From assembly GCA_947074145.1 (NCBI GenBank), contig CAMTOJ010000001.1:1-64000 (forward strand): a stretch of DNA of 64,000 nt. The letters are read 5' to 3'. Source of the DNA: an uncultured Bacteroidales bacterium (GTDB lineage: Bacteria > Bacteroidota > Bacteroidia > Bacteroidales > JAUNSR01). Below are positions 1 through 26,224 of the stretch, piece by piece. Positions within the stretch are counted from its first letter, which is position 1. Every line of letters begins with the position of its first letter. A program made the translations under genes and the position numbers. The notes under the pieces are model-generated. The model did no database searches. It worked only from the letters and a program-made list of their open reading frames with translations, and was not told the origin of the DNA.

Positions 1-46
1 TACACTAATCTTAACACTCTTTCCCTACACGACGCTCTTCCGATCT
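1..46 (+). other. Illumina TruSeq P5 adapter contamination (artefact)
   Basis: This is synthetic DNA, not genome. Bases 1-5 (TACAC) match the end of the P5 flow-cell sequence, bases 6-13 (TAATCTTA) match the 8-base TruSeq HT i5 index known as D506, and bases 14-46 match the complete 33-base read-1 primer site, ending in GCTCTTCCGATCT. The three parts occur in the exact order and spacing of the library adapter. Genomic sequence begins at base 47, inside luxS. Confidence 0.97.
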
Positions 47-1990: not shown

Positions 1991-2388
1991 ATCGATGTAT
2001 TTTAAAGGTTGTTTACGATAATTTATTAACACGAATAAATCAGATTTGGTTTAAAAAATAACAAGATTTAATCTCTTGTTATCTCTATTATAAGTAGGGA
2101 AATGCAAATTAGAAGTGATCTTTACAATGTAATACAAAATGAATATTAATAAAGAAAAAAGATAAAATTATATACAAGAATTGTATCAGTAGGTTTGTAT
2201 GTGAATTTTCGAAAATCATGCTTATATACTCTTAAAACAATGATTTTAGAACTAATTTAACACTTTCTATAATTTTTTTATTTAATCAAAATGTAATATT
2301 TATAAGTCTTATATAAATATAAACCAATAAAATTCTGTAGTGTTTATAAATTAAAAAATTAATCCAATACATTATAGATCAAACTAAA
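1991..2388. other. Intergenic region upstream of the radical SAM operon
   Basis: About 400 bp, very AT-rich. It holds a 9-bp stem-loop at 2058-2082 (ATAACAAGA/TCTTGTTAT) and several spurious ATG codons. The longest plus-strand peptide starting here is 15 codons (2102-2149). It lacks features of a RiPP precursor (no leader/core pattern, no Cys), so it is not called as a gene. Promoters for both flanking genes presumably lie here but no clear pair of elements was found. Confidence 0.5.
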
Positions 2389-3561
2389 ATGATAATAGAA
2401 AATCTAAATATTAGTTTTAATAATATAACATTCCCGATTTATATTATGACTAAAAGTGTAGGCAATAACTGCAATTTAAATTGTACATATTGTCAGAAAA
2501 AGAGCAGCACAAATAATGATTTAATGAGTATCAATGTTTTGGAGCGTTTTACCAAATTATATATAGAAGCTCAGATACATTCTTCTGTAAATTTTTACTG
2601 GATAGGAGGAGAACCGATGCTCTTAGGTACTGAATTTTATACTAAAGCCATTGAATTCCAGTCTATATATGGAAAAGGCAAAAAGATTAATAACACAATA
2701 CAAACTAACGGAACATTAATCACGGATGAGTGGCTACATTTTCTAAAAGAAAATGACTTCACTGTAATATTGACTATTGACGGCCCACAATTCTGTCACG
2801 ATCATTACAGAGTTGATAAAAACGGTAAAGGAACTTTCAACGATGTTATGGAGTCGTTAAATAAAATTCGGGAATATGGAATCAAGCATAGTATAAAGAC
2901 TACAATTAATGATTTTAACTCTAAGTTTCCTTTAGAGATGTATCATTTTTTCAAGGAAAACAAAATATTAAATCTAAACTTTCAACCTCATGTATCCTCG
3001 ATTCGCGGTAGAGTGACTGAATGGTCGGTTTCACCTATTAGTTACGGCAATTTTCTTTGTTCTATATTTGATGAATGGGTACGTAAAGATATAGGCCGTG
3101 TTAATGTTTCAATATTCGATAATACCTTAAAAGTATTTTGTCGTAAAGAAACCCACAATTGCGTTTATTCTCAAACTTGCGGCCATATTGCTATGGCTGA
3201 TGTTGAAGGAAATCTATATACCTGCAATAAATTTGATGCCGATGATTATCAAATTGGAAATATTGATAATTACACAATTACAAGGATGATGTATGGTAGG
3301 AAACAATTGAAATTCGGACAACAAAAAAGATCAAACTTAACTTTACAATGTAAAAAGTGTCAATTTTTGAAGTTTTGTAATGGTGGATGCCCAAAAGATA
3401 GAATCGGATGTTCAATAAATGGTGAAAAGAAACATAATTTTTTATGTGCAGGATACCAAAAGTTTTATAATCATGTTGCCCCAACTATGACATATATGGC
3501 AGGGGAGATTGCCGAGGGTGGAAATGTCTCTCGTGTTATGACTTTCTTTGAAGATAATTAA
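2389..3561 (+). CDS. Radical SAM/SPASM protein, anSME-like with altered active site
   Basis: The sequence follows the anaerobic sulfatase-maturating enzyme (anSME) family end to end. It has the CxxxCxxC cluster (C28, C32, C35), GGEP for SAM binding (about 73-76), QTNGTL, and all eight auxiliary-cluster cysteines (C258, C264, C279, C321, C324, C330, C334, C353). Classical anSMEs convert a sulfatase Cys or Ser to formylglycine. Compared from memory with the C. perfringens enzyme, the catalytic-base Asp after the auxiliary cysteine (CD, D277) is Asn280 here, the Gln before GGEP (Q64) is Ile, and the residue after CxxxCxxC (Phe) is Gln. No sulfatase gene lies in the window. Substrate is therefore uncertain. 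It forms an operon with the OsmC-like gene 27 bp downstream. Confidence 0.88.
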   Translation: MIIENLNISFNNITFPIYIMTKSVGNNCNLNCTYCQKKSSTNNDLMSINVLERFTKLYIEAQIHSSVNFYWIGGEPMLLGTEFYTKAIEFQSIYGKGKKINNTIQTNGTLITDEWLHFLKENDFTVILTIDGPQFCHDHYRVDKNGKGTFNDVMESLNKIREYGIKHSIKTTINDFNSKFPLEMYHFFKENKILNLNFQPHVSSIRGRVTEWSVSPISYGNFLCSIFDEWVRKDIGRVNVSIFDNTLKVFCRKETHNCVYSQTCGHIAMADVEGNLYTCNKFDADDYQIGNIDNYTITRMMYGRKQLKFGQQKRSNLTLQCKKCQFLKFCNGGCPKDRIGCSINGEKKHNFLCAGYQKFYNHVAPTMTYMAGEIAEGGNVSRVMTFFEDN

Positions 3562-3588
3562 AGCAGTAACTTATTAATTTACAATACT

Positions 3589-4023
3589 ATGTTAAAAAAT
3601 GCAACAGTAAAATGGCAAGGTGGTCAACGAATTGAAGCTATTATTGATAAGCGTATCATTGTTCTTTCTTCTTCAAATCAAAATGAAACAATGTCGCCTG
3701 AATCTATTTTATTAATCTCATTAGGTTCTTCTTGTGCTTTGGAAATAATTTCACAGCTAAAAATCAGTAAAATTGAAGTAGATTCATTTGAACTCAATAT
3801 TCAGGCAACAAGAGAAAAATTAAATTCCAATATATTTAAGGGTTTTAATATTGATTTTGTTTGTTCCGGTAAATCTATCAATATTCCCAAATTAATAGTT
3901 TCAATTGAAAATGCAATCTTTGAGAACTCCGGTATAGCTATAATGTTTAGTAAATTTGCAACATTGAACTATAAACTTTTTGTGAATGGGGTAACAATTA
4001 ATAAAGAGGATTATTTTAAGTGA
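3589..4023 (+). CDS. OsmC-family protein with displaced/missing catalytic cysteines
   Basis: This 144-residue protein fits the OsmC/YhfA fold: an N-terminal strand pair (ATVKWQGGQRIEAI), then MSPESILLISLGSSCALEIISQL on the central helix, and a C-terminal IMFSKFATLNYKLFVNG. OsmC proteins reduce organic hydroperoxides using two cysteines, in LGxC and YCSVSxxL. Here the first canonical position is Ser and the only nearby Cys is one residue later; the second position is Ser (ENSGIAIMF). A classical Cys-pair peroxidase mechanism is therefore unlikely. It probably shares a transcript with the preceding radical SAM gene, and its stop lies only 14 bp from the stop of the convergent gene, with no terminator between them. 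Confidence 0.75.
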   Translation: MLKNATVKWQGGQRIEAIIDKRIIVLSSSNQNETMSPESILLISLGSSCALEIISQLKISKIEVDSFELNIQATREKLNSNIFKGFNIDFVCSGKSINIPKLIVSIENAIFENSGIAIMFSKFATLNYKLFVNGVTINKEDYFK

Positions 4024-4037
4024 TTATAAAATTTTCT

Positions 4038-5129
4038 TTACATATTAGAATACATAATATAACTCTTATATATTTCGCTTCCTATTGTAAGAATTAATCC
4101 TGACATAGCTTCTTCATTACTGAAAAATTCATTGTATAATTTGATATTACCTTTCGACTTAATCAAATCACCTCTTAATGATCCATCTTTTGTGATCATT
4201 GATAATATGCAGTTGTTTAGCATATTGTCAATATAATATATATAGTCGTCTGCTTTAAGTAATCCTGAATTTATTCCTTTTGAGAGTATATATAACCAAA
4301 TTAATTCTGATATTAATTCATCTTTATCAATATTAGATAAGTTCTCGTTAGACAATAGCTTCGGATTATTTGTGAATTTCCGATAATTTGATGTTGCTTT
4401 ATGGAAATCTTTAATTAGTGGTGCTCTCCTTGTATCTTGTTCGTCAAGGTCATTTATTATCGCTAACATTCCATACAATATCATCTCATTTTCACCTGTA
4501 CGGATATAATTATTGATACATTTTTTAGAGTTAGTTACACCCCATAGATTCATCTTTTTATTAAAAGTCTCCTTTCTTTTATAAAGATTCAATCTTTCAA
4601 TAGCTCTATCGGCGAATAATTTTTCATGCGACAAACTGCTCATTTTTGATAGGATAGGAGCAACAATAAAGAAAAAACTTTCATCAATATAGTCAAGTTG
4701 CGAAACTGAATTAATATACATTTCGCAACTTGATCTTATAGATCGTATTCTTGCGCCTTCGGGGGCGAGTTTGAATAAATCAATATAAACTTTCCCGCTA
4801 TAATAATCTGTAATATTCTTTGTATTGCTTCCTCCTGCTAATTCCCATTCATTATATATACTCCAATCCTCAGCAAATTGATAATATTCATCATCTGCAT
4901 ATATTTTAAAAAGATTCATTAAACCCTCAAAATATAATGACTTTGATAAAATATTAGTTTTTGATCTGTGACTATCTCCAGGATTCAACACTGTATAATC
5001 AGAGTATTTATCCATGTGAAAGGAATTGAGTTTTTTCAATTCATTAAGTATATCATCTGCCTGATATCTCATTTGAGAAAAAACAGTTGTGGAAAAAAAA
5101 CAGAAAAAAGCAATTGTTAAGAATTTCAT
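4038..5129 (-). CDS. Secreted GH105/GH88-like six-hairpin protein, possibly inactive
   Basis: A 363-residue protein with a signal peptide (hydrophobic residues 4-18, FSQ cleavage region). Residues about 64-165 follow the unsaturated-glucuronyl/rhamnogalacturonyl hydrolase pattern (EGLM.L, DWS..NEW, GSNTKNITDYYSGKVYIDLF, YIDESFFFIVAPILSKM). These families remove unsaturated uronic acids from polysaccharide-lyase products. Aspartates align with the usual catalytic positions (D108 and D149), but the LWWRD and RGNGW landmarks that normally follow are replaced by WGVTNSKK and TGENEM. It may be a divergent hydrolase or a carbohydrate-binding remnant. No lyase or SusCD pair is nearby. The family assignment is by eye. 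Confidence 0.55.
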   Translation of the reverse strand: MKFLTIAFFCFFSTTVFSQMRYQADDILNELKKLNSFHMDKYSDYTVLNPGDSHRSKTNILSKSLYFEGLMNLFKIYADDEYYQFAEDWSIYNEWELAGGSNTKNITDYYSGKVYIDLFKLAPEGARIRSIRSSCEMYINSVSQLDYIDESFFFIVAPILSKMSSLSHEKLFADRAIERLNLYKRKETFNKKMNLWGVTNSKKCINNYIRTGENEMILYGMLAIINDLDEQDTRRAPLIKDFHKATSNYRKFTNNPKLLSNENLSNIDKDELISELIWLYILSKGINSGLLKADDYIYYIDNMLNNCILSMITKDGSLRGDLIKSKGNIKLYNEFFSNEEAMSGLILTIGSEIYKSYIMYSNM

Positions 5130-18769: not shown

Positions 18770-21700
18770 ATGTCAGAACGTATTAGAAAGCATATATATA
18801 TATTATTTATCATAATAGGCGGGATATTGGGTTGTTCCGCCATATTTGCGTCCGGTTCTCAGATACCTTATTTACCACAGGATAATACCAATAACTCGGA
18901 TGAAGAAGATAAGAAAAATGTAAAATTCTCTGTCAAAAAGACTTTTACAGAGGATTGGGAAGATCTTGATAAACAAAATCCTATCGATCTTAAATCTCCT
19001 TCAAATATCAAAGAGGATATTGAATATGATTATCTTACAGATACTTATGTGTATAAAACTAAAGTAGGAGATCAAGTAATATCTGTTCCTTTTAACATGA
19101 CAAAAGAGGAGTATCTGAATTATACCAGACGAAAACTTATTCAATCCTATTTTAATAGTAAGAATGCTGAATTGCTTGTAAAGGAGGGTGATAATGAGTT
19201 TAACTTCCTTGACATGCAGTTTGGACTCGGACCGGCTGAAAAGATATTCGGTCCCGGAGGTATCCAGGTAAGAACGCAAGGTTCGGCAGAGATATCATTC
19301 GGGCTAAAGAAAAATAAGATTGATAATCCATCACTTCCTGCTAAATCAAGAAACAAAACATATTTTGATTTCGACGAAAAGATTCAGCTTAATGTCAATG
19401 CAAAAGTTGGCGATAAAATGGATTTTGCGTTGAATTACAATACTGATGCTACTTTCGATTTTGATGCCCAGCAGTTAAAACTTTCTTATCAAGGCAAAGA
19501 GGATGAGATAATTAAATCGCTTGAGGCAGGTAATGTGAGTATGACAACCGGATCGTCGCTTATCAGAGGTAGTGCGGCTCTTTTTGGTGTTAAGACAACT
19601 TTGCAATTCGGAAAACTTAATGTTACGGCACTTCTTGCTCAACAGGAGTCTACATCTCAGAGTGTCAGTTCAAAAGGAGGGGCTCAGACAAGAAATTTTG
19701 AGTTTACCGCAGATTCATATGATGAAGATCGTCACTTCTTCCTTTCTCATTATTTCAGGGATAACTATGATCAATTTATCTCAAAACTTCCATACATATC
19801 CTCCGGAATAGAGATCTCAAAAATTGAGGTTTGGGTAACCAATAAAAGAGGAAATTATGATCAGGCAAGAAATATAGTGGCTTTTATGGACCTTGCGGAG
19901 TCGACAAAGCTCGGGAGTAATTACTGGCAATCGTCTGGGATAGGTTATCCGTCAAATACTTCTAATAATCTATATCAAACAATTGTCAATGAATTTCCTG
20001 ATGCAAGAAATATTAATCAGGTAACTCAGTCACTATCACAGCTTTCAGCATTCGGGATAGATGGAGGAAAAGATTTTGAGAAGGTTGAGAGTGCGAGAAG
20101 AATGTCAGAATCAGAGTATATACTTAATAAGAGTCTGGGATATATCTCTCTTAAAAGTAAACTAAACCCTGATGAAGTTCTTGCTGTTGCTTATGAATAT
20201 ACTGCAAATGGCAAGGTGTATCAGGTAGGAGAGTTCTCTACCTCAACTGAGAATTCTCAACAAAGTATGTATCTGAAATTATTGAAAGGTACAGCTGTTA
20301 ATACCAGACTTCCGATGTGGCATCTTATGATGAAGAATGTCTATTCGTTGAATGCTTATCAGATTCAGAAAGATAAGTTTAAGCTTGATATTCAATATAT
20401 GAGCGATACTACCGGTGTTTATCTGAATTATATACAGGCGGGAAATATTGCAGATCAGCTATTGATAAGGGTTTTAAATCTTGACCGTCTTGACTCTCAA
20501 AATGAGAGAAATCCTGACGGTTATTTCGATTATGTCGAAGGTTTTACAGTGATCCCCTCAATTGGACGCGTTATTTTCCCTTCGATTGAGCCTTTCGGTT
20601 CTTTTTTAGCTTCTAAAATCGGAAATGCCCAATTGGCAGATAAATATTGTTATCAGGAACTTTACGATTCGACTCTTACAGTGGCACGACAAGTGGCAGA
20701 GAAAAATAAGTTTCGAATAAAAGGAGAATATCGCTCTTCATCCGGTTCTGAAATAAATCTTAATGCAATGAATGTTCCAAGAGGTTCTGTTGTTGTAACT
20801 GCCGGAGGTGTGACGTTGACCGAAAATACCGATTATACTGTTGATTATACAATGGGTATTGTCACAATCCTTAATCAGAGTATCCTTGATGCCGGAACAA
20901 ACATAAATGTATCACTTGAGAGTCAGTCAATGTTTAGTATGCAAAGAAAAACAATGATGGGACTTGATGTTCAGTATGCCTTTAATAAGGATTTCAATAT
21001 AGGAGCAACCGTAATGCATCTATCCGAAAAACCTTTGACAACAAAGGTAAATATGGATGATATACCTCTGAACAACACAATTTACGGCTTTAATGCAAGT
21101 TATAAAACCTCATTTATGTGGTTGACAAATCTTATGGGATCTGTGCCATGGATAGATGCAACAGCACCATCTTCTTTTTCAATAAACGGAGAATTTGCTC
21201 AGCTTAAACCGGGACACTCAAAGACTATTACTAAAGATGGCCATGCTTATCTTGATGATTTTGAATCATCACAAACAGGTTATGATATTCGTACGCCTTA
21301 TTCATGGCAAATGGCATCAACACCTTATGATCCATCGTCAAATGCTCTGTTTCCGGAAGCTGCATTGTCTAACGATGTGGCATATGGGAAAAATCGTGCC
21401 TTACTTAACTGGTATAATATTGACCGACTGTTTACACAAAAAAATTCGTCACTTACGCCTGCTCATATAAAAAGAGATTTGGAACAGCTTTCAAATCATT
21501 ATGTTCGCGAGGTAAGTTATAGTGAAATATATCCAAATAAAGAGTTAAGCTATGGTGAGTCCGGTATGCTTAATATAATGAATATCTCATTCTATCCTAC
21601 AGAAAGAGGTCCTTATAACCTTGATTGGGAGGGGATTGATGAGATGGGATATCTGACAAATCCTAAATCTCGCTGGGGTGGTATGATGAGAAAAATCGAT

Positions 21701-24700
21701 AATACCGATTTTGAAGCTCAAAATATTGAATATATTCAGTTTTGGATGATGGATCCATTTATTTATGATTCAACCAATCATGTCGCGGGTGGTGATCTAT
21801 ATTTTAACCTGGGAGAGGTATCGGAAGATATTTTGAAAGATGGAATGAAATCATTTGAGAACGGTCTGCCTATAGATGGAGATACAACATATCTTGCAAC
21901 GACAGTTTGGGGACGAGTTTCTAAAAGAACTTCCACCGTATATGCTTTTGAGACAGCAACAGGGGCAAGAAAACTTCAAGACGTAGGTCTTAATGGTCTT
22001 TCGACTGAGGATGAATTTAATTTTTCTTCTTATAAAAATTATGTTGAAAGAGCAAGCGGACGTCTGTCCGATGCAGGATATCAGCGACTTATAAGTGATC
22101 CTTTCTCTTTTCTTAATGACCCTGCAGGTGATAATTACCATTATTACAGAGGTTCGGATTATGATAATCAAGAGGTAGATATCCTTACAAGATATAAACG
22201 TTATAATGCGGTGGAGGGTAACTCTACAGCATCGGAAGATTCGCCTGAGAGATATGATATCTCTGCCAGAACAACTCCTGATGTGGAGGATATTAACCAG
22301 GATAATACACTTAATGAGTATGAGAGATATTATCAGTATAAAATATCTCTTCGTCCAACCGATTTGACAGTTGGTAATAATTATGTCAGTGATGTAAAAA
22401 CATCAAGGGTAAAATTAAGAAACGGAAAAGAGGAAACTATAAAATGGTATCAGTTTAAGATACCTTTAACAGAATATCAAAAGAAAGTTGGAGCGATAAA
22501 CGATTTTAAAACTATTCGTTTCATCCGTTTATTCCTTACTGATTTTGAAAAAGATGTGCATCTTCGTTTTGCTTCTATGGAGTTGATGCGTGGCGATTGG
22601 AGAACCTATACACAAGAACTAAATAAAGACGGAGTTACTCCGGTTTCAAAAGGATCTATTGCTGTTTCTGTAGTAAATATTGAAGAAAATGCAGGATCTA
22701 TTCCTGTAAATTACATTATGCCTCCGGGAGTTACTCGTGTGGTTGACCCGGGACAGTCGCAGATTACTCAGCTTAATGAGCAGTCGATGGCTCTTAAGAT
22801 TGGAGATCTTGCGCCATCTGATGCCCGAGCAGTTTATAAAAACAGTTCTATCGATATGCGTCAATATAAACGAATACAAATGTTTGTACATGGTGAGGCG
22901 TTTATTGATAATCTGACTAATTTAAAGAGTGGTGAACTTTCTGTATTTATGCGTCTTGGTAGCGATTATAAAGACAATTACTATGAATATGAAATACCTA
23001 TTTCTCTTACAGAACCCGGTATTTACAATAATAATAGTCTTACTGACAGAAAAACTGTTTGGCCAGAATCAAATATGTTTGATTTTCCATTGACTTTATT
23101 GACCGATCTTAAACTTGAAAGAAATGCAGAGAAACGTAAGAATTATTCAAATGTTACATTCAATACTGTTTACTCGATTTATGATCCTGAGAAATTGAGA
23201 AATAGGGTATCAATTGTTGGTAATCCTTCTCTTTCAGAGGTCAGAACCATTATGATTGGTGTTAGAAATAATAGTAAAACTATCAAAGATGCTAATGTTT
23301 GGGTTGACGAACTTCGTCTTGTCGGGTTTAATGAAGAGGGCGGATGGGCAGCCAAAGCAAATGCCAGTTTAGGTATAAGTGATATTGCATCTATCAATGT
23401 CGGCGGTCAGATTGAGACAGCCGGGTTCGGTAGTGTGGACCAGAGTCTTAGCCAACGTCGTATTGATAACTATTATCAATATAATATATCTACACAAGTG
23501 GAGGCAGGGCGTCTTATTCCGGAACCTGTAAAACTAAAGGCTCCTGTTTATTATTCTTATTCACAAGAGGTGACAACTCCTGAGTATGATCCTTATAATC
23601 AGGATATTAAACTTTCTCAGAGTCTTGAGAATTGTGATACAAAAGCACAGCGTGATTCTGTAAGATCTCTTTCTCAGGAGGTTGTAACGGTTGAAAGTTT
23701 CAGCGTATCAGGTTTGAAATTTAATATACAAGGAGATAAACCAATGCCTTGGGATCCGGCGAATCTAACTATGAGTTATGCATATTCGAGAACTTCAAAA
23801 CGTGATCCAACAACAGATTTTGAAAATAATTATAATTACCGAGGTTCAATAAGTTATAATTATAGCCCATACTTTAAACCATGGAAACCATTTTCCGGTA
23901 TAAAAAGTAAGTCGCCTTATGTTAGACTTGCCAAAGATTTTACATTTAATTGGTTGCCAAATAATATCGGTTTATATTCAAATATGAACAGAACATATTA
24001 TGAACAACAATTGAAAAATGTGGATGAAACGGGTATGTCGGAGTTTTATGTTCCAATCTCTTTTAGTAAGAATTTCTTGTGGGACAGACAAACAACAATA
24101 AGTTGGGATCTTCTAAAAACGTTGAAACTAAATTTCAATGCATCCACTAATTCTCGTATAGATGAACCGAATACACCTGTTAATAAACAGTTGTATCCTG
24201 ATGAATATGAACATTGGAAGGATTCTGTAAGACAGAATATATTAAGAATGGGTACTCCGATTAAATTTAATCAGACTTTTGATGCTGCTTATACTTTGCC
24301 ATTGAATAAGATACCTTTCCTTGATTGGAGTAGTGCTTCGGTGAAATATAATTCAAGTTATGTTTGGAATAAGGGGACGTTTGTGGATGAGTTCACTAAT
24401 CTTGGAAATAATATTACAAATCAGGCTCAGTACCAGGGTGATATTAAATTTAATATGGAGAATTTATATAATAAATCGGCTTTCTTGAAAGAAACAAACC
24501 GTAAGTTTTCTCCTACCAATAGAGCCTCTAATAATAAGAATAATAATAATAATGCGAAAGCTAAGAAAAAATTCTCTCAAAGAATTCAATTGAAAAAAGA
24601 TACAACAGTTACCGTTAAACATAATCTTGATAATAAAAATCTTAAGGTAACTGCACTGAATTCAAAGAAAGAACCATATTCAATAAAGTATAAGGTAAAA

Positions 24701-26224
24701 GACAAGAATACTATTATTATTACAACTAAGGATTCTGAAGCTGTACAGTTAACCATTAATCAGGGTAAACGCCCCGAAGAGGAATTATGGTATCAGACTG
24801 CTCAATATGGGTCAAGAGCTTTAATGGCAGTAAGAAATATCTCTCTCGGATATAAACGAACATCAAGTACTTATCTGCCATCTTTCCAACCATCAGTGGG
24901 TGATTTCATGGGTCAGAATAACGAATCGTTAATGGCTCCCGGGCTTGGATTTGCTTTTGGATTTGAGACAGGAGAAGAGTATATAAATAAGGCCTTGAGA
25001 AATAACTGGCTTATAGTAAATGACTCATTAACCTCTCCGGCTTCATTTGCAATAACCGAAGATTTGCAGTATAAAATATCTATTGAGCCTTTTAGAGATT
25101 TTAAGATTGATCTTAATGGTAGTCGTGTACACACGCAAAGTTCTACGTATCAGTTTATGTTCCCAGATGTTCCTCGTCAACATTCCGGTTCATTTACAAT
25201 GACAACTATTGCAGTCAAAACATCTCTAAAAAGATATAAAGCAGAGAATGGATATCAGTCGGATGCTTTCGATAATTTAGTAAAATATAGAAGTACAATT
25301 TCAGGAAGAATCAATTCTCAATATGCAGGTGCCAAATATCCCAATACAGGATTTCTTGCATCATCTCATCTTGCGGGAACCACATTTGATCCAAATATTG
25401 CAGGTAACCGACTTAATTCGGCAGATGTTCTTATCCCTGCTTTTGTAGCAGCTTATACGGGAAGAGATGCTAAAAATGTGGGACTTTCTCCATTCCCTTC
25501 TATATTGAGTATTCTACCAAACTGGAGGGTTACTTATGGTGGATTGGTAAGACTTATTCCGGGAGCATCGAAATATTTGAGATCCATTAATGTGAATCAT
25601 GCTTATAGATGTACTTATAGTGTAGGTTCTTTTGCTTCATACTTAAATTATATTGAGAATTCGGAAGGACTAGGTTTTGCACTTGATGCAACTAATGATT
25701 GTCCGATGCCATCTTCTCCTTTTGATATTGGAAGTGTAAGTATTACTGAAAGTTATGCTCCGCTTATCGGATTTGATCTGAATTTCAAAAACGGAGTTAC
25801 TGCTAAGATCGAGTATAAGGATACAAGAAATCTGAGTCTTAATATTACTTCTGTACAGATTGTTGAATCGGTATCGAAAGATGTTACTGTGGGTGCTGGA
25901 TATAAAATAGCCAATTTCAATACTATAATAGGAATGAAAGGTGGTGGTCAAAAAGGTGTGAATCATGATCTTACATTGCGTAGTGATTTCTCTTTCAGAA
26001 AGCAAAATGCTCTTATCAGAAAGATTGATGAAAATTATACACAAGCAACATCGGGCAATAAATCTTTGACTATTAAGTTTACCGCAGATTATACATTTAG
26101 TAAATATTTGACAATCAGAGGATATTATGATAAACAGATAAATACACCGCTTGTTTCTTCATCTTCTTATCCTATTTCAAATTCTAATTTCGGGGTTACT
26201 CTTAAGATGGCGCTTACCAGATAA
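18770..26224 (+). CDS. sprA: Type IX secretion translocon SprA (Sov)
   Basis: A 2,484-residue giant outer-membrane protein, close to the 2,400-2,500 residues known for F. johnsoniae SprA and P. gingivalis Sov. SprA is the 36-strand outer-membrane pore of the type IX secretion system (gliding, protease and adhesin export). It has a signal peptide (about 1-29), early repeats of LQFGPAE-like and VGDKMDFALNYNTDATFDFD text, and YDIRTPYSWQMASTPYDP and WGGMMRKIDNTDFEAQNIEYIQFWMMDPF segments typical of the family. The C-terminal barrel ends in FGVTLKMALTR. An (AAT)n tract near 24529-24553 encodes a poly-Asn linker. No other T9SS gene is in the window. Confidence 0.95.
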   Translation: MSERIRKHIYILFIIIGGILGCSAIFASGSQIPYLPQDNTNNSDEEDKKNVKFSVKKTFTEDWEDLDKQNPIDLKSPSNIKEDIEYDYLTDTYVYKTKVGDQVISVPFNMTKEEYLNYTRRKLIQSYFNSKNAELLVKEGDNEFNFLDMQFGLGPAEKIFGPGGIQVRTQGSAEISFGLKKNKIDNPSLPAKSRNKTYFDFDEKIQLNVNAKVGDKMDFALNYNTDATFDFDAQQLKLSYQGKEDEIIKSLEAGNVSMTTGSSLIRGSAALFGVKTTLQFGKLNVTALLAQQESTSQSVSSKGGAQTRNFEFTADSYDEDRHFFLSHYFRDNYDQFISKLPYISSGIEISKIEVWVTNKRGNYDQARNIVAFMDLAESTKLGSNYWQSSGIGYPSNTSNNLYQTIVNEFPDARNINQVTQSLSQLSAFGIDGGKDFEKVESARRMSESEYILNKSLGYISLKSKLNPDEVLAVAYEYTANGKVYQVGEFSTSTENSQQSMYLKLLKGTAVNTRLPMWHLMMKNVYSLNAYQIQKDKFKLDIQYMSDTTGVYLNYIQAGNIADQLLIRVLNLDRLDSQNERNPDGYFDYVEGFTVIPSIGRVIFPSIEPFGSFLASKIGNAQLADKYCYQELYDSTLTVARQVAEKNKFRIKGEYRSSSGSEINLNAMNVPRGSVVVTAGGVTLTENTDYTVDYTMGIVTILNQSILDAGTNINVSLESQSMFSMQRKTMMGLDVQYAFNKDFNIGATVMHLSEKPLTTKVNMDDIPLNNTIYGFNASYKTSFMWLTNLMGSVPWIDATAPSSFSINGEFAQLKPGHSKTITKDGHAYLDDFESSQTGYDIRTPYSWQMASTPYDPSSNALFPEAALSNDVAYGKNRALLNWYNIDRLFTQKNSSLTPAHIKRDLEQLSNHYVREVSYSEIYPNKELSYGESGMLNIMNISFYPTERGPYNLDWEGIDEMGYLTNPKSRWGGMMRKIDNTDFEAQNIEYIQFWMMDPFIYDSTNHVAGGDLYFNLGEVSEDILKDGMKSFENGLPIDGDTTYLATTVWGRVSKRTSTVYAFETATGARKLQDVGLNGLSTEDEFNFSSYKNYVERASGRLSDAGYQRLISDPFSFLNDPAGDNYHYYRGSDYDNQEVDILTRYKRYNAVEGNSTASEDSPERYDISARTTPDVEDINQDNTLNEYERYYQYKISLRPTDLTVGNNYVSDVKTSRVKLRNGKEETIKWYQFKIPLTEYQKKVGAINDFKTIRFIRLFLTDFEKDVHLRFASMELMRGDWRTYTQELNKDGVTPVSKGSIAVSVVNIEENAGSIPVNYIMPPGVTRVVDPGQSQITQLNEQSMALKIGDLAPSDARAVYKNSSIDMRQYKRIQMFVHGEAFIDNLTNLKSGELSVFMRLGSDYKDNYYEYEIPISLTEPGIYNNNSLTDRKTVWPESNMFDFPLTLLTDLKLERNAEKRKNYSNVTFNTVYSIYDPEKLRNRVSIVGNPSLSEVRTIMIGVRNNSKTIKDANVWVDELRLVGFNEEGGWAAKANASLGISDIASINVGGQIETAGFGSVDQSLSQRRIDNYYQYNISTQVEAGRLIPEPVKLKAPVYYSYSQEVTTPEYDPYNQDIKLSQSLENCDTKAQRDSVRSLSQEVVTVESFSVSGLKFNIQGDKPMPWDPANLTMSYAYSRTSKRDPTTDFENNYNYRGSISYNYSPYFKPWKPFSGIKSKSPYVRLAKDFTFNWLPNNIGLYSNMNRTYYEQQLKNVDETGMSEFYVPISFSKNFLWDRQTTISWDLLKTLKLNFNASTNSRIDEPNTPVNKQLYPDEYEHWKDSVRQNILRMGTPIKFNQTFDAAYTLPLNKIPFLDWSSASVKYNSSYVWNKGTFVDEFTNLGNNITNQAQYQGDIKFNMENLYNKSAFLKETNRKFSPTNRASNNKNNNNNAKAKKKFSQRIQLKKDTTVTVKHNLDNKNLKVTALNSKKEPYSIKYKVKDKNTIIITTKDSEAVQLTINQGKRPEEELWYQTAQYGSRALMAVRNISLGYKRTSSTYLPSFQPSVGDFMGQNNESLMAPGLGFAFGFETGEEYINKALRNNWLIVNDSLTSPASFAITEDLQYKISIEPFRDFKIDLNGSRVHTQSSTYQFMFPDVPRQHSGSFTMTTIAVKTSLKRYKAENGYQSDAFDNLVKYRSTISGRINSQYAGAKYPNTGFLASSHLAGTTFDPNIAGNRLNSADVLIPAFVAAYTGRDAKNVGLSPFPSILSILPNWRVTYGGLVRLIPGASKYLRSINVNHAYRCTYSVGSFASYLNYIENSEGLGFALDATNDCPMPSSPFDIGSVSITESYAPLIGFDLNFKNGVTAKIEYKDTRNLSLNITSVQIVESVSKDVTVGAGYKIANFNTIIGMKGGGQKGVNHDLTLRSDFSFRKQNALIRKIDENYTQATSGNKSLTIKFTADYTFSKYLTIRGYYDKQINTPLVSSSSYPISNSNFGVTLKMALTR

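What the first reader, a model, noticed from the sequence alone, without database searches (positions are those of the whole stretch)
2389..4023. Two-gene operon pairing the altered radical SAM enzyme with a Cys-displaced OsmC protein
The genes are 27 bp apart on one strand, with no other genes in the unit. The pairing of a radical SAM/SPASM enzyme with an OsmC-fold protein is not one I recognise. Both members have lost canonical catalytic residues of their families, which hints at a joint, different function such as binding or modifying a thiol or small peptide.
Basis: inference. Interest (0 to 1): 0.65.

Follow-up and report, generated by a model that had tools for sequence, protein, structure and literature searches.

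The report
Repurposed sulfatase-activator paired with cysteine-less OsmC
Two neighbouring bacterial genes encode an enzyme descended from the activators of sulfatases, but with its sulfatase-specific active-site residues replaced, and a relative of a peroxide-handling protein that has lost its two key cysteines; the pair is conserved in only one other known species, so it is probably a young, lineage-specific partnership with an unknown job.

Summary
2389-3561(+) is a radical SAM/SPASM protein and 3589-4023(+) an OsmC-fold protein, 27 bp apart, followed by a convergent gene. The first gene is an anaerobic sulfatase-maturase (anSME) paralogue. All 11 cluster cysteines are kept, but residues invariant in 82 other anSMEs are replaced, including the catalytic Asp (Asp277 in anSMEcpe), here Asn280. 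Four congeneric genomes carry this altered clade (SH-aLRT 100). No FGly-type sulfatase was found in this genome or in the one other genome with the pair. The second gene is a YhfA-type OsmC in which both signature cysteines are Ser, with a Cys one residue after the first. Both genes are under purifying selection, and the OsmC pocket blocks are 37/39 identical between the two species. The operon occurs only in these two species; in two other congeners the OsmC gene lies behind sprA, 2.5 and 20 kb from the altered enzyme. No OsmC was seen near ordinary anSMEs. Best reading: a repurposed protein- or peptide-modifying radical enzyme that recently acquired a refunctionalised OsmC-fold partner. Substrate unknown; the functional link is inferred, not shown. 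A new variant of known kinds, of moderate interest.

The parts
2389..3561 (+). rSAM': anSME-derived radical SAM/SPASM protein (390 aa); CxxxCxxC at C28/C32/C35; Aux I C258/C264/C279/C334; Aux II C321/C324/C330/C353; anSME-invariant residues replaced (L125T, G127I, S129T, Q197N, E203S, D280N, H281K, V283D)
3562..3588 (+). 27-bp intergenic gap without a terminator-like site; consistent with co-transcription
3589..4023 (+). OsmC': YhfA-type OsmC-fold protein (144 aa) with both signature Cys replaced by Ser (S48, S114) and a Cys displaced to 49
2242..2388 (+). conserved non-coding leader of the operon: 84% identical over 139 nt to G003, against about 49% at third codon positions of rSAM'; contains palindrome TTATAAGTCTTATA at 2300-2313 and a predicted fold that pairs with the start region of rSAM'
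4038..5129 (-). convergent GH88-like secreted protein; flanking gene, not part of the unit; fast-evolving (37% to G003)

Best explanation
rSAM' is a paralogue of anaerobic sulfatase-maturating enzyme that keeps its radical machinery (SAM cluster plus two fully ligated auxiliary clusters; ligands shown by sequence) but has exchanged the residues that make it a sulfatase maturase (shown). It therefore most likely still performs a SAM-dependent oxidation or cross-link on a residue of a protein or peptide other than a C/S-x-P/A-x-R sulfatase (inferred). In the branch leading to this species and G003, the gene for a YhfA-type OsmC protein moved from behind sprA to directly behind rSAM', changed orientation, lost both signature cysteines and settled into a newly constrained pocket (present-day gene order and conservation are shown; the move itself is inferred). 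OsmC' is then most likely the dedicated partner of rSAM': either the protein it modifies, around S48/C49/S114, or a dimeric binding or delivery protein for its substrate or product (inferred, unproven).
For: anSME family above the NCBI cut-off and anSME fold. All 11 cluster Cys retained, while D280, H281, V283, L125, G127 and E203, at or near 100% in 82 other anSMEs, are lost in all four clade members; 17 of 85 near-invariant columns differ in the window protein, enriched on barrel-strand segments (11/17 against 12/68, Fisher p 3e-4; segments chosen after inspection). Clade of 4 with SH-aLRT 100. G004 carries both the altered enzyme and a normal anSME. No FGly-motif sulfatase in G000 or G003, but several in G002 and G004. 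Purifying selection: rSAM' 88% aa against 49% identity at third positions; OsmC' dN/dS about 0.14. OsmC' pocket blocks 37/39 identical against 58/105 elsewhere. Relocation: OsmC behind sprA in G002 and G004, absent there in the window. Conserved operon leader.
Against: The operon is found in only two sister species. rSAM' is older than the pairing and persists without it in G002 and G004, so it does not need OsmC'. OsmC drift is also seen without pairing in G002, where the first Cys is Asn. No interaction, expression or activity evidence. OsmC' has no sulfatase-type CxPxR motif. Orthology of OsmC' to the sprA-linked OsmC rests on a very long branch (bootstrap 91, SH-aLRT 47).
Confidence: 0.45

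Rival explanations
1. The two genes are independent. rSAM' is a repurposed anSME with its own unidentified peptide or protein substrate (RiPP-maturase-like), and OsmC' landed behind it by a local rearrangement in a region where both genes already lay, so the adjacency carries no functional meaning.
For: rSAM' exists unpaired in G002 and G004. Both genes lie in the same Lon-RuvA-SprA region in congeners, 2.5 or 20 kb apart, so a short rearrangement suffices. The pair is limited to two sister species.
Against: The OsmC gene turned into co-orientation with a 27-bp gap and kept it through saturation of synonymous sites. Loss of both Cys, otherwise almost invariant in 50 relatives, is seen only in the paired copies. 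No precursor-peptide ORF shared by both species upstream of rSAM'.
Confidence: 0.35
2. rSAM' is still an anaerobic sulfatase maturase, as automatic annotation would call it, with tolerated active-site changes.
For: TIGR03942 score above the equivalog cut-off; same fold, all cluster cysteines kept.
Against: The catalytic Asp and neighbouring invariant residues are lost in the whole clade. No sulfatase with the FGly motif was found in G000 or G003. G004 keeps a normal anSME as well.
Confidence: 0.08
3. Both genes are degenerate remnants (relaxed selection).
For: Long stem branches in both trees; family-defining residues lost.
Against: Open frames, 88% and 67% protein identity with synonymous sites near saturation, pocket blocks 37/39 identical, all Fe-S ligands kept.
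Confidence: 0.03

Closest known systems
Anaerobic sulfatase-maturating enzyme (anSMEcpe, PDB 4k36-4k39; TIGR03942)
   Same: Fold, length, CxxxCxxC, all eight SPASM cysteines, about 40-46% identity to Bacteroidales anSMEs
   Different: Catalytic Asp277 is Asn; H281, V283, L125, G127, Q197, E203 and the residues after CxxC replaced; no FGly-type sulfatase found in the genome
SPASM peptide maturases related to anSME (DynA, DarE/DarW, ChlB)
   Same: Radical SAM/SPASM architecture; next-ranked family matches (DynA 218 bits; ChlB structure TMt 0.80)
   Different: Scores far below their cut-offs; no precursor-peptide gene recognised nearby; Aux I has four Cys ligands as in anSME
YhfA-type OsmC proteins (E. 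coli YhfA, PDB 1ml8; NF008009)
   Same: Best structural and sequence match; OsmC/Ohr fold
   Different: Both signature Cys are Ser, Cys shifted by one; 32.6 bits against a cut-off of 138. The YhfA subfamily is itself described as the exception to peroxidase activity (PMC4069020)

Membership tests
Anaerobic sulfatase maturase (TIGR03942) | Profile score above equivalog cut-off | tested here: met
   372.8 against 349.45 bits
Anaerobic sulfatase maturase (TIGR03942) | CxxxCxxC and eight SPASM cysteines ligating two auxiliary clusters | tested here: met
   C28/32/35; C258/264/279/334; C321/324/330/353; ligand assignment from PMC5491770
Anaerobic sulfatase maturase (TIGR03942) | Catalytic Asp directly after the third Aux I cysteine (Asp277 in anSMEcpe; its role is from my own knowledge of the anSMEcpe work) | tested here: not met
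   Asn280 here; N, N, Y in the three relatives; Asp in all 82 other anSMEs aligned
Anaerobic sulfatase maturase (TIGR03942) | A sulfatase substrate with C/S-x-P/A-x-R in the genome | tested here: not met
   Only EptA-like, LtaS-like and iPGM proteins match PF00884; no motif. Genome 95% complete
Anaerobic sulfatase maturase (TIGR03942) | Formylglycine formation | not testable with these tools
   needs assay
OsmC/Ohr superfamily (YhfA type) | OsmC fold | tested here: met
   pLDDT 89.7 model; 1ml8 E 7.6e-10
OsmC/Ohr superfamily (YhfA type) | Two signature cysteines | tested here: not met
   Ser48 and Ser114; almost invariant Cys in relatives
OsmC/Ohr superfamily (YhfA type) | Curated profile cut-offs | tested here: not met
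   Pfam 22 against 27.5; NF008009 32.6 against 138. The ordinary G004 OsmC also misses the NF008009 cut-off, so this criterion is weak
SPASM RiPP maturase (DynA, DarE and others) | Family score above cut-off | tested here: not met
   DynA 217.8 against 450 bits
SPASM RiPP maturase (DynA, DarE and others) | Precursor peptide gene nearby | tested here: inconclusive
   No small ORF shared between the two species upstream of rSAM'; a distant precursor is not excluded

The most novel reading that the evidence does not exclude
rSAM' post-translationally modifies OsmC' itself (for example at S48/C49 or S114), installing a radical-derived cofactor or cross-link in place of the lost cysteines, so that an OsmC-fold pocket works with a modified residue instead of a thiol.
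Probability: 0.12. Interest if true: 0.85.

Novelty: new variant of a known kind. Interest (0 to 1): 0.45.

Why it matters
Automatic annotation would call rSAM' a sulfatase maturase in an organism in which no FGly-type sulfatase was found. The clade marks the step at which an anSME changed substrate while keeping its full set of clusters, and G004 keeps old and new copies in one genome, which makes that change directly testable. If OsmC' proves to be the substrate or carrier, it would be a new kind of radical-SAM-dependent protein maturation.

Tried and rejected
Precursor peptide near rSAM': small ORFs in the upstream region are not shared by the two species. Known RNA element in the leader: no credible Rfam hit. 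The palindrome TTATAAGTCTTATA as a regulon box: a single exact copy in the genome, against 6 for the reversed control. Leader copies elsewhere in the genus: only short AT-rich matches; the best one (G001) lies at murE/mraY. Viperin-type (pVip) PADLOC hits are generic radical SAM similarity. Wider distribution of rSAM': phylum, order and named-genome surveys gave only ordinary D-type anSMEs outside the genus among the loci examined. OsmC near anSME elsewhere: none in the named loci with 6-kb flanks or the phylum loci; order-wide OsmC tables were truncated, so this is not a full count. GH88-like gene as a third member: convergent, fast-evolving, absent from G002 and G004. FTN_1133 as a precedent for a one-Cys OsmC: rejected, since PMC4069020 says it is not an OsmC protein.

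Full report
Observation. The two genes are as described: 2389-3561(+) and 3589-4023(+), 27 bp apart, followed by a convergent gene. No terminator-like site separates them.

What the first gene is. It scores above the NCBI equivalog cut-off for anaerobic sulfatase maturase (372.8 against 349.45 bits), its best solved relative is anSMEcpe, and its model (pLDDT 88.4) matches 4k39 at TMt 0.90. All eleven cluster-ligating cysteines are present, including the fourth Aux I cysteine that the other SPASM enzymes compared in PMC5491770 lack. Against 82 other anSMEs from several phyla, 17 of 85 columns conserved at 95% or more differ in the window protein, and ten differ in all four members of its clade. 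Among these ten are L125, G127, E203, D280, H281 and V283. D280 aligns with Asp277 of anSMEcpe, whose catalytic role I know from the literature on that enzyme but could not find in the held papers. The changes are enriched on barrel-strand segments (Fisher p 3e-4; I drew the segments after seeing the data).

Its relatives. Among the genomes searched, only four, all of one genus, carry this clade: the window's genome G000, G003 (88%), G004 (52%) and G002 (49%, cut by adapter sequence at a contig end); clade support SH-aLRT 100. G004 also has an ordinary anSME with D/H. G002 and G004 have sulfatases with the C/S-x-P/A-x-R motif; in G000 and G003 only EptA-like, LtaS-like and mutase-type proteins match the sulfatase family and none carries the motif. 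A phylum-wide sample and named genomes gave no further member. So the altered enzyme survives where sulfatases and the normal maturase appear to be absent, which argues that it no longer matures sulfatases. G002 is 71% complete, G000 and G003 about 95%, so absences in the latter two are strong but not absolute.

What the second gene is. Sequence profiles place it weakly in OsmC (below cut-offs), but the model (pLDDT 89.7) matches YhfA 1ml8 and many OsmC structures. LGGCTGMD has become LGSSCALE and YCGVA has become NSGIA. In an alignment of 53 sequences, every one outside the genus has both cysteines; G002 has lost the first (Asn) and only the paired copies have lost both. The two paired copies are 37/39 identical in the three blocks around the classical active site and 58/105 elsewhere (blocks chosen by inspection). 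That is constraint on a pocket without its thiols, not decay.

Gene order. In G004 and G002 the OsmC gene lies on the opposite strand directly behind sprA, while the altered radical SAM gene is about 20 kb and 2.5 kb away. In the window sprA (18770-26224) is followed by an rluA-like gene instead (gene names here are my reading of the translations), and G000 and G003 have no other OsmC gene. The simplest account is that OsmC moved and flipped to sit behind rSAM' in the ancestor of G000 and G003. The tree agrees, with the four OsmC genes on one side of a branch (bootstrap 91, SH-aLRT 47), but the branch to the paired copies is extremely long, so orthology is inferred, not proven. Among the named loci with flanks up to 6 kb no other anSME has an OsmC gene nearby.

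Selection. Between G000 and G003, rSAM' is 88% identical at protein level with 49% identity at third positions, as conserved as the best neighbouring genes; OsmC' has dN/dS about 0.14 by NG86 with high dS. The 139 nt upstream of the operon are 84% identical and the first 15 codons keep 13 of 15 third positions, which suggests a regulatory leader. A fold that pairs the start region is predicted (z -2.97 here, -1.76 in G003), but two sequences cannot test it by covariation.

Interpretation. Shown: a repurposed-looking anSME clade with intact radical machinery; a Cys-less OsmC under constraint; an operon held in two species. Inferred: modification of a protein or peptide; OsmC' as substrate or partner. 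The leading rival is that the adjacency is an accident of local rearrangement. I give 0.45 to partnership and 0.35 to independence. A search for papers on radical SAM/SPASM with OsmC found none that describes such a pair, in an open-access library only.

Noticed in passing
window 15-46; contigs C1, C30, C55, C58, C79, C97 of G000: Uncut Illumina adapter sequence at contig ends (7 exact copies in the genome). It replaces the C-terminus of luxS at 25-537, so the listed luxS protein is a hybrid. The G002 contig ending inside rSAM' also ends in adapter-derived sequence.
   Followed up: yes
window 2242-2388: Non-coding leader of the operon conserved at 84% between species whose third codon positions are about 49% identical, with a palindrome TTATAAGTCTTATA unique in the genome and a predicted fold over the rSAM' start.
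   Followed up: partly
window 4038-5129 (-): GH88-like secreted protein evolving far faster (37% to G003) than its neighbours (about 66-88%), and absent from the two other congeners with rSAM'.
   Followed up: partly
L147 7659-8837 and 9002-9457 (G004): The ordinary anSME of G004 is divergent from luxS; in the window luxS lies about 2 kb from the altered enzyme, so the paralogues may have arisen near each other.
   Followed up: no
L144 4428-5057 (G002): OsmC behind sprA has Asn in place of the first signature Cys (GGNTGMD) while keeping the second: a second, partial departure in the same genus.
   Followed up: no
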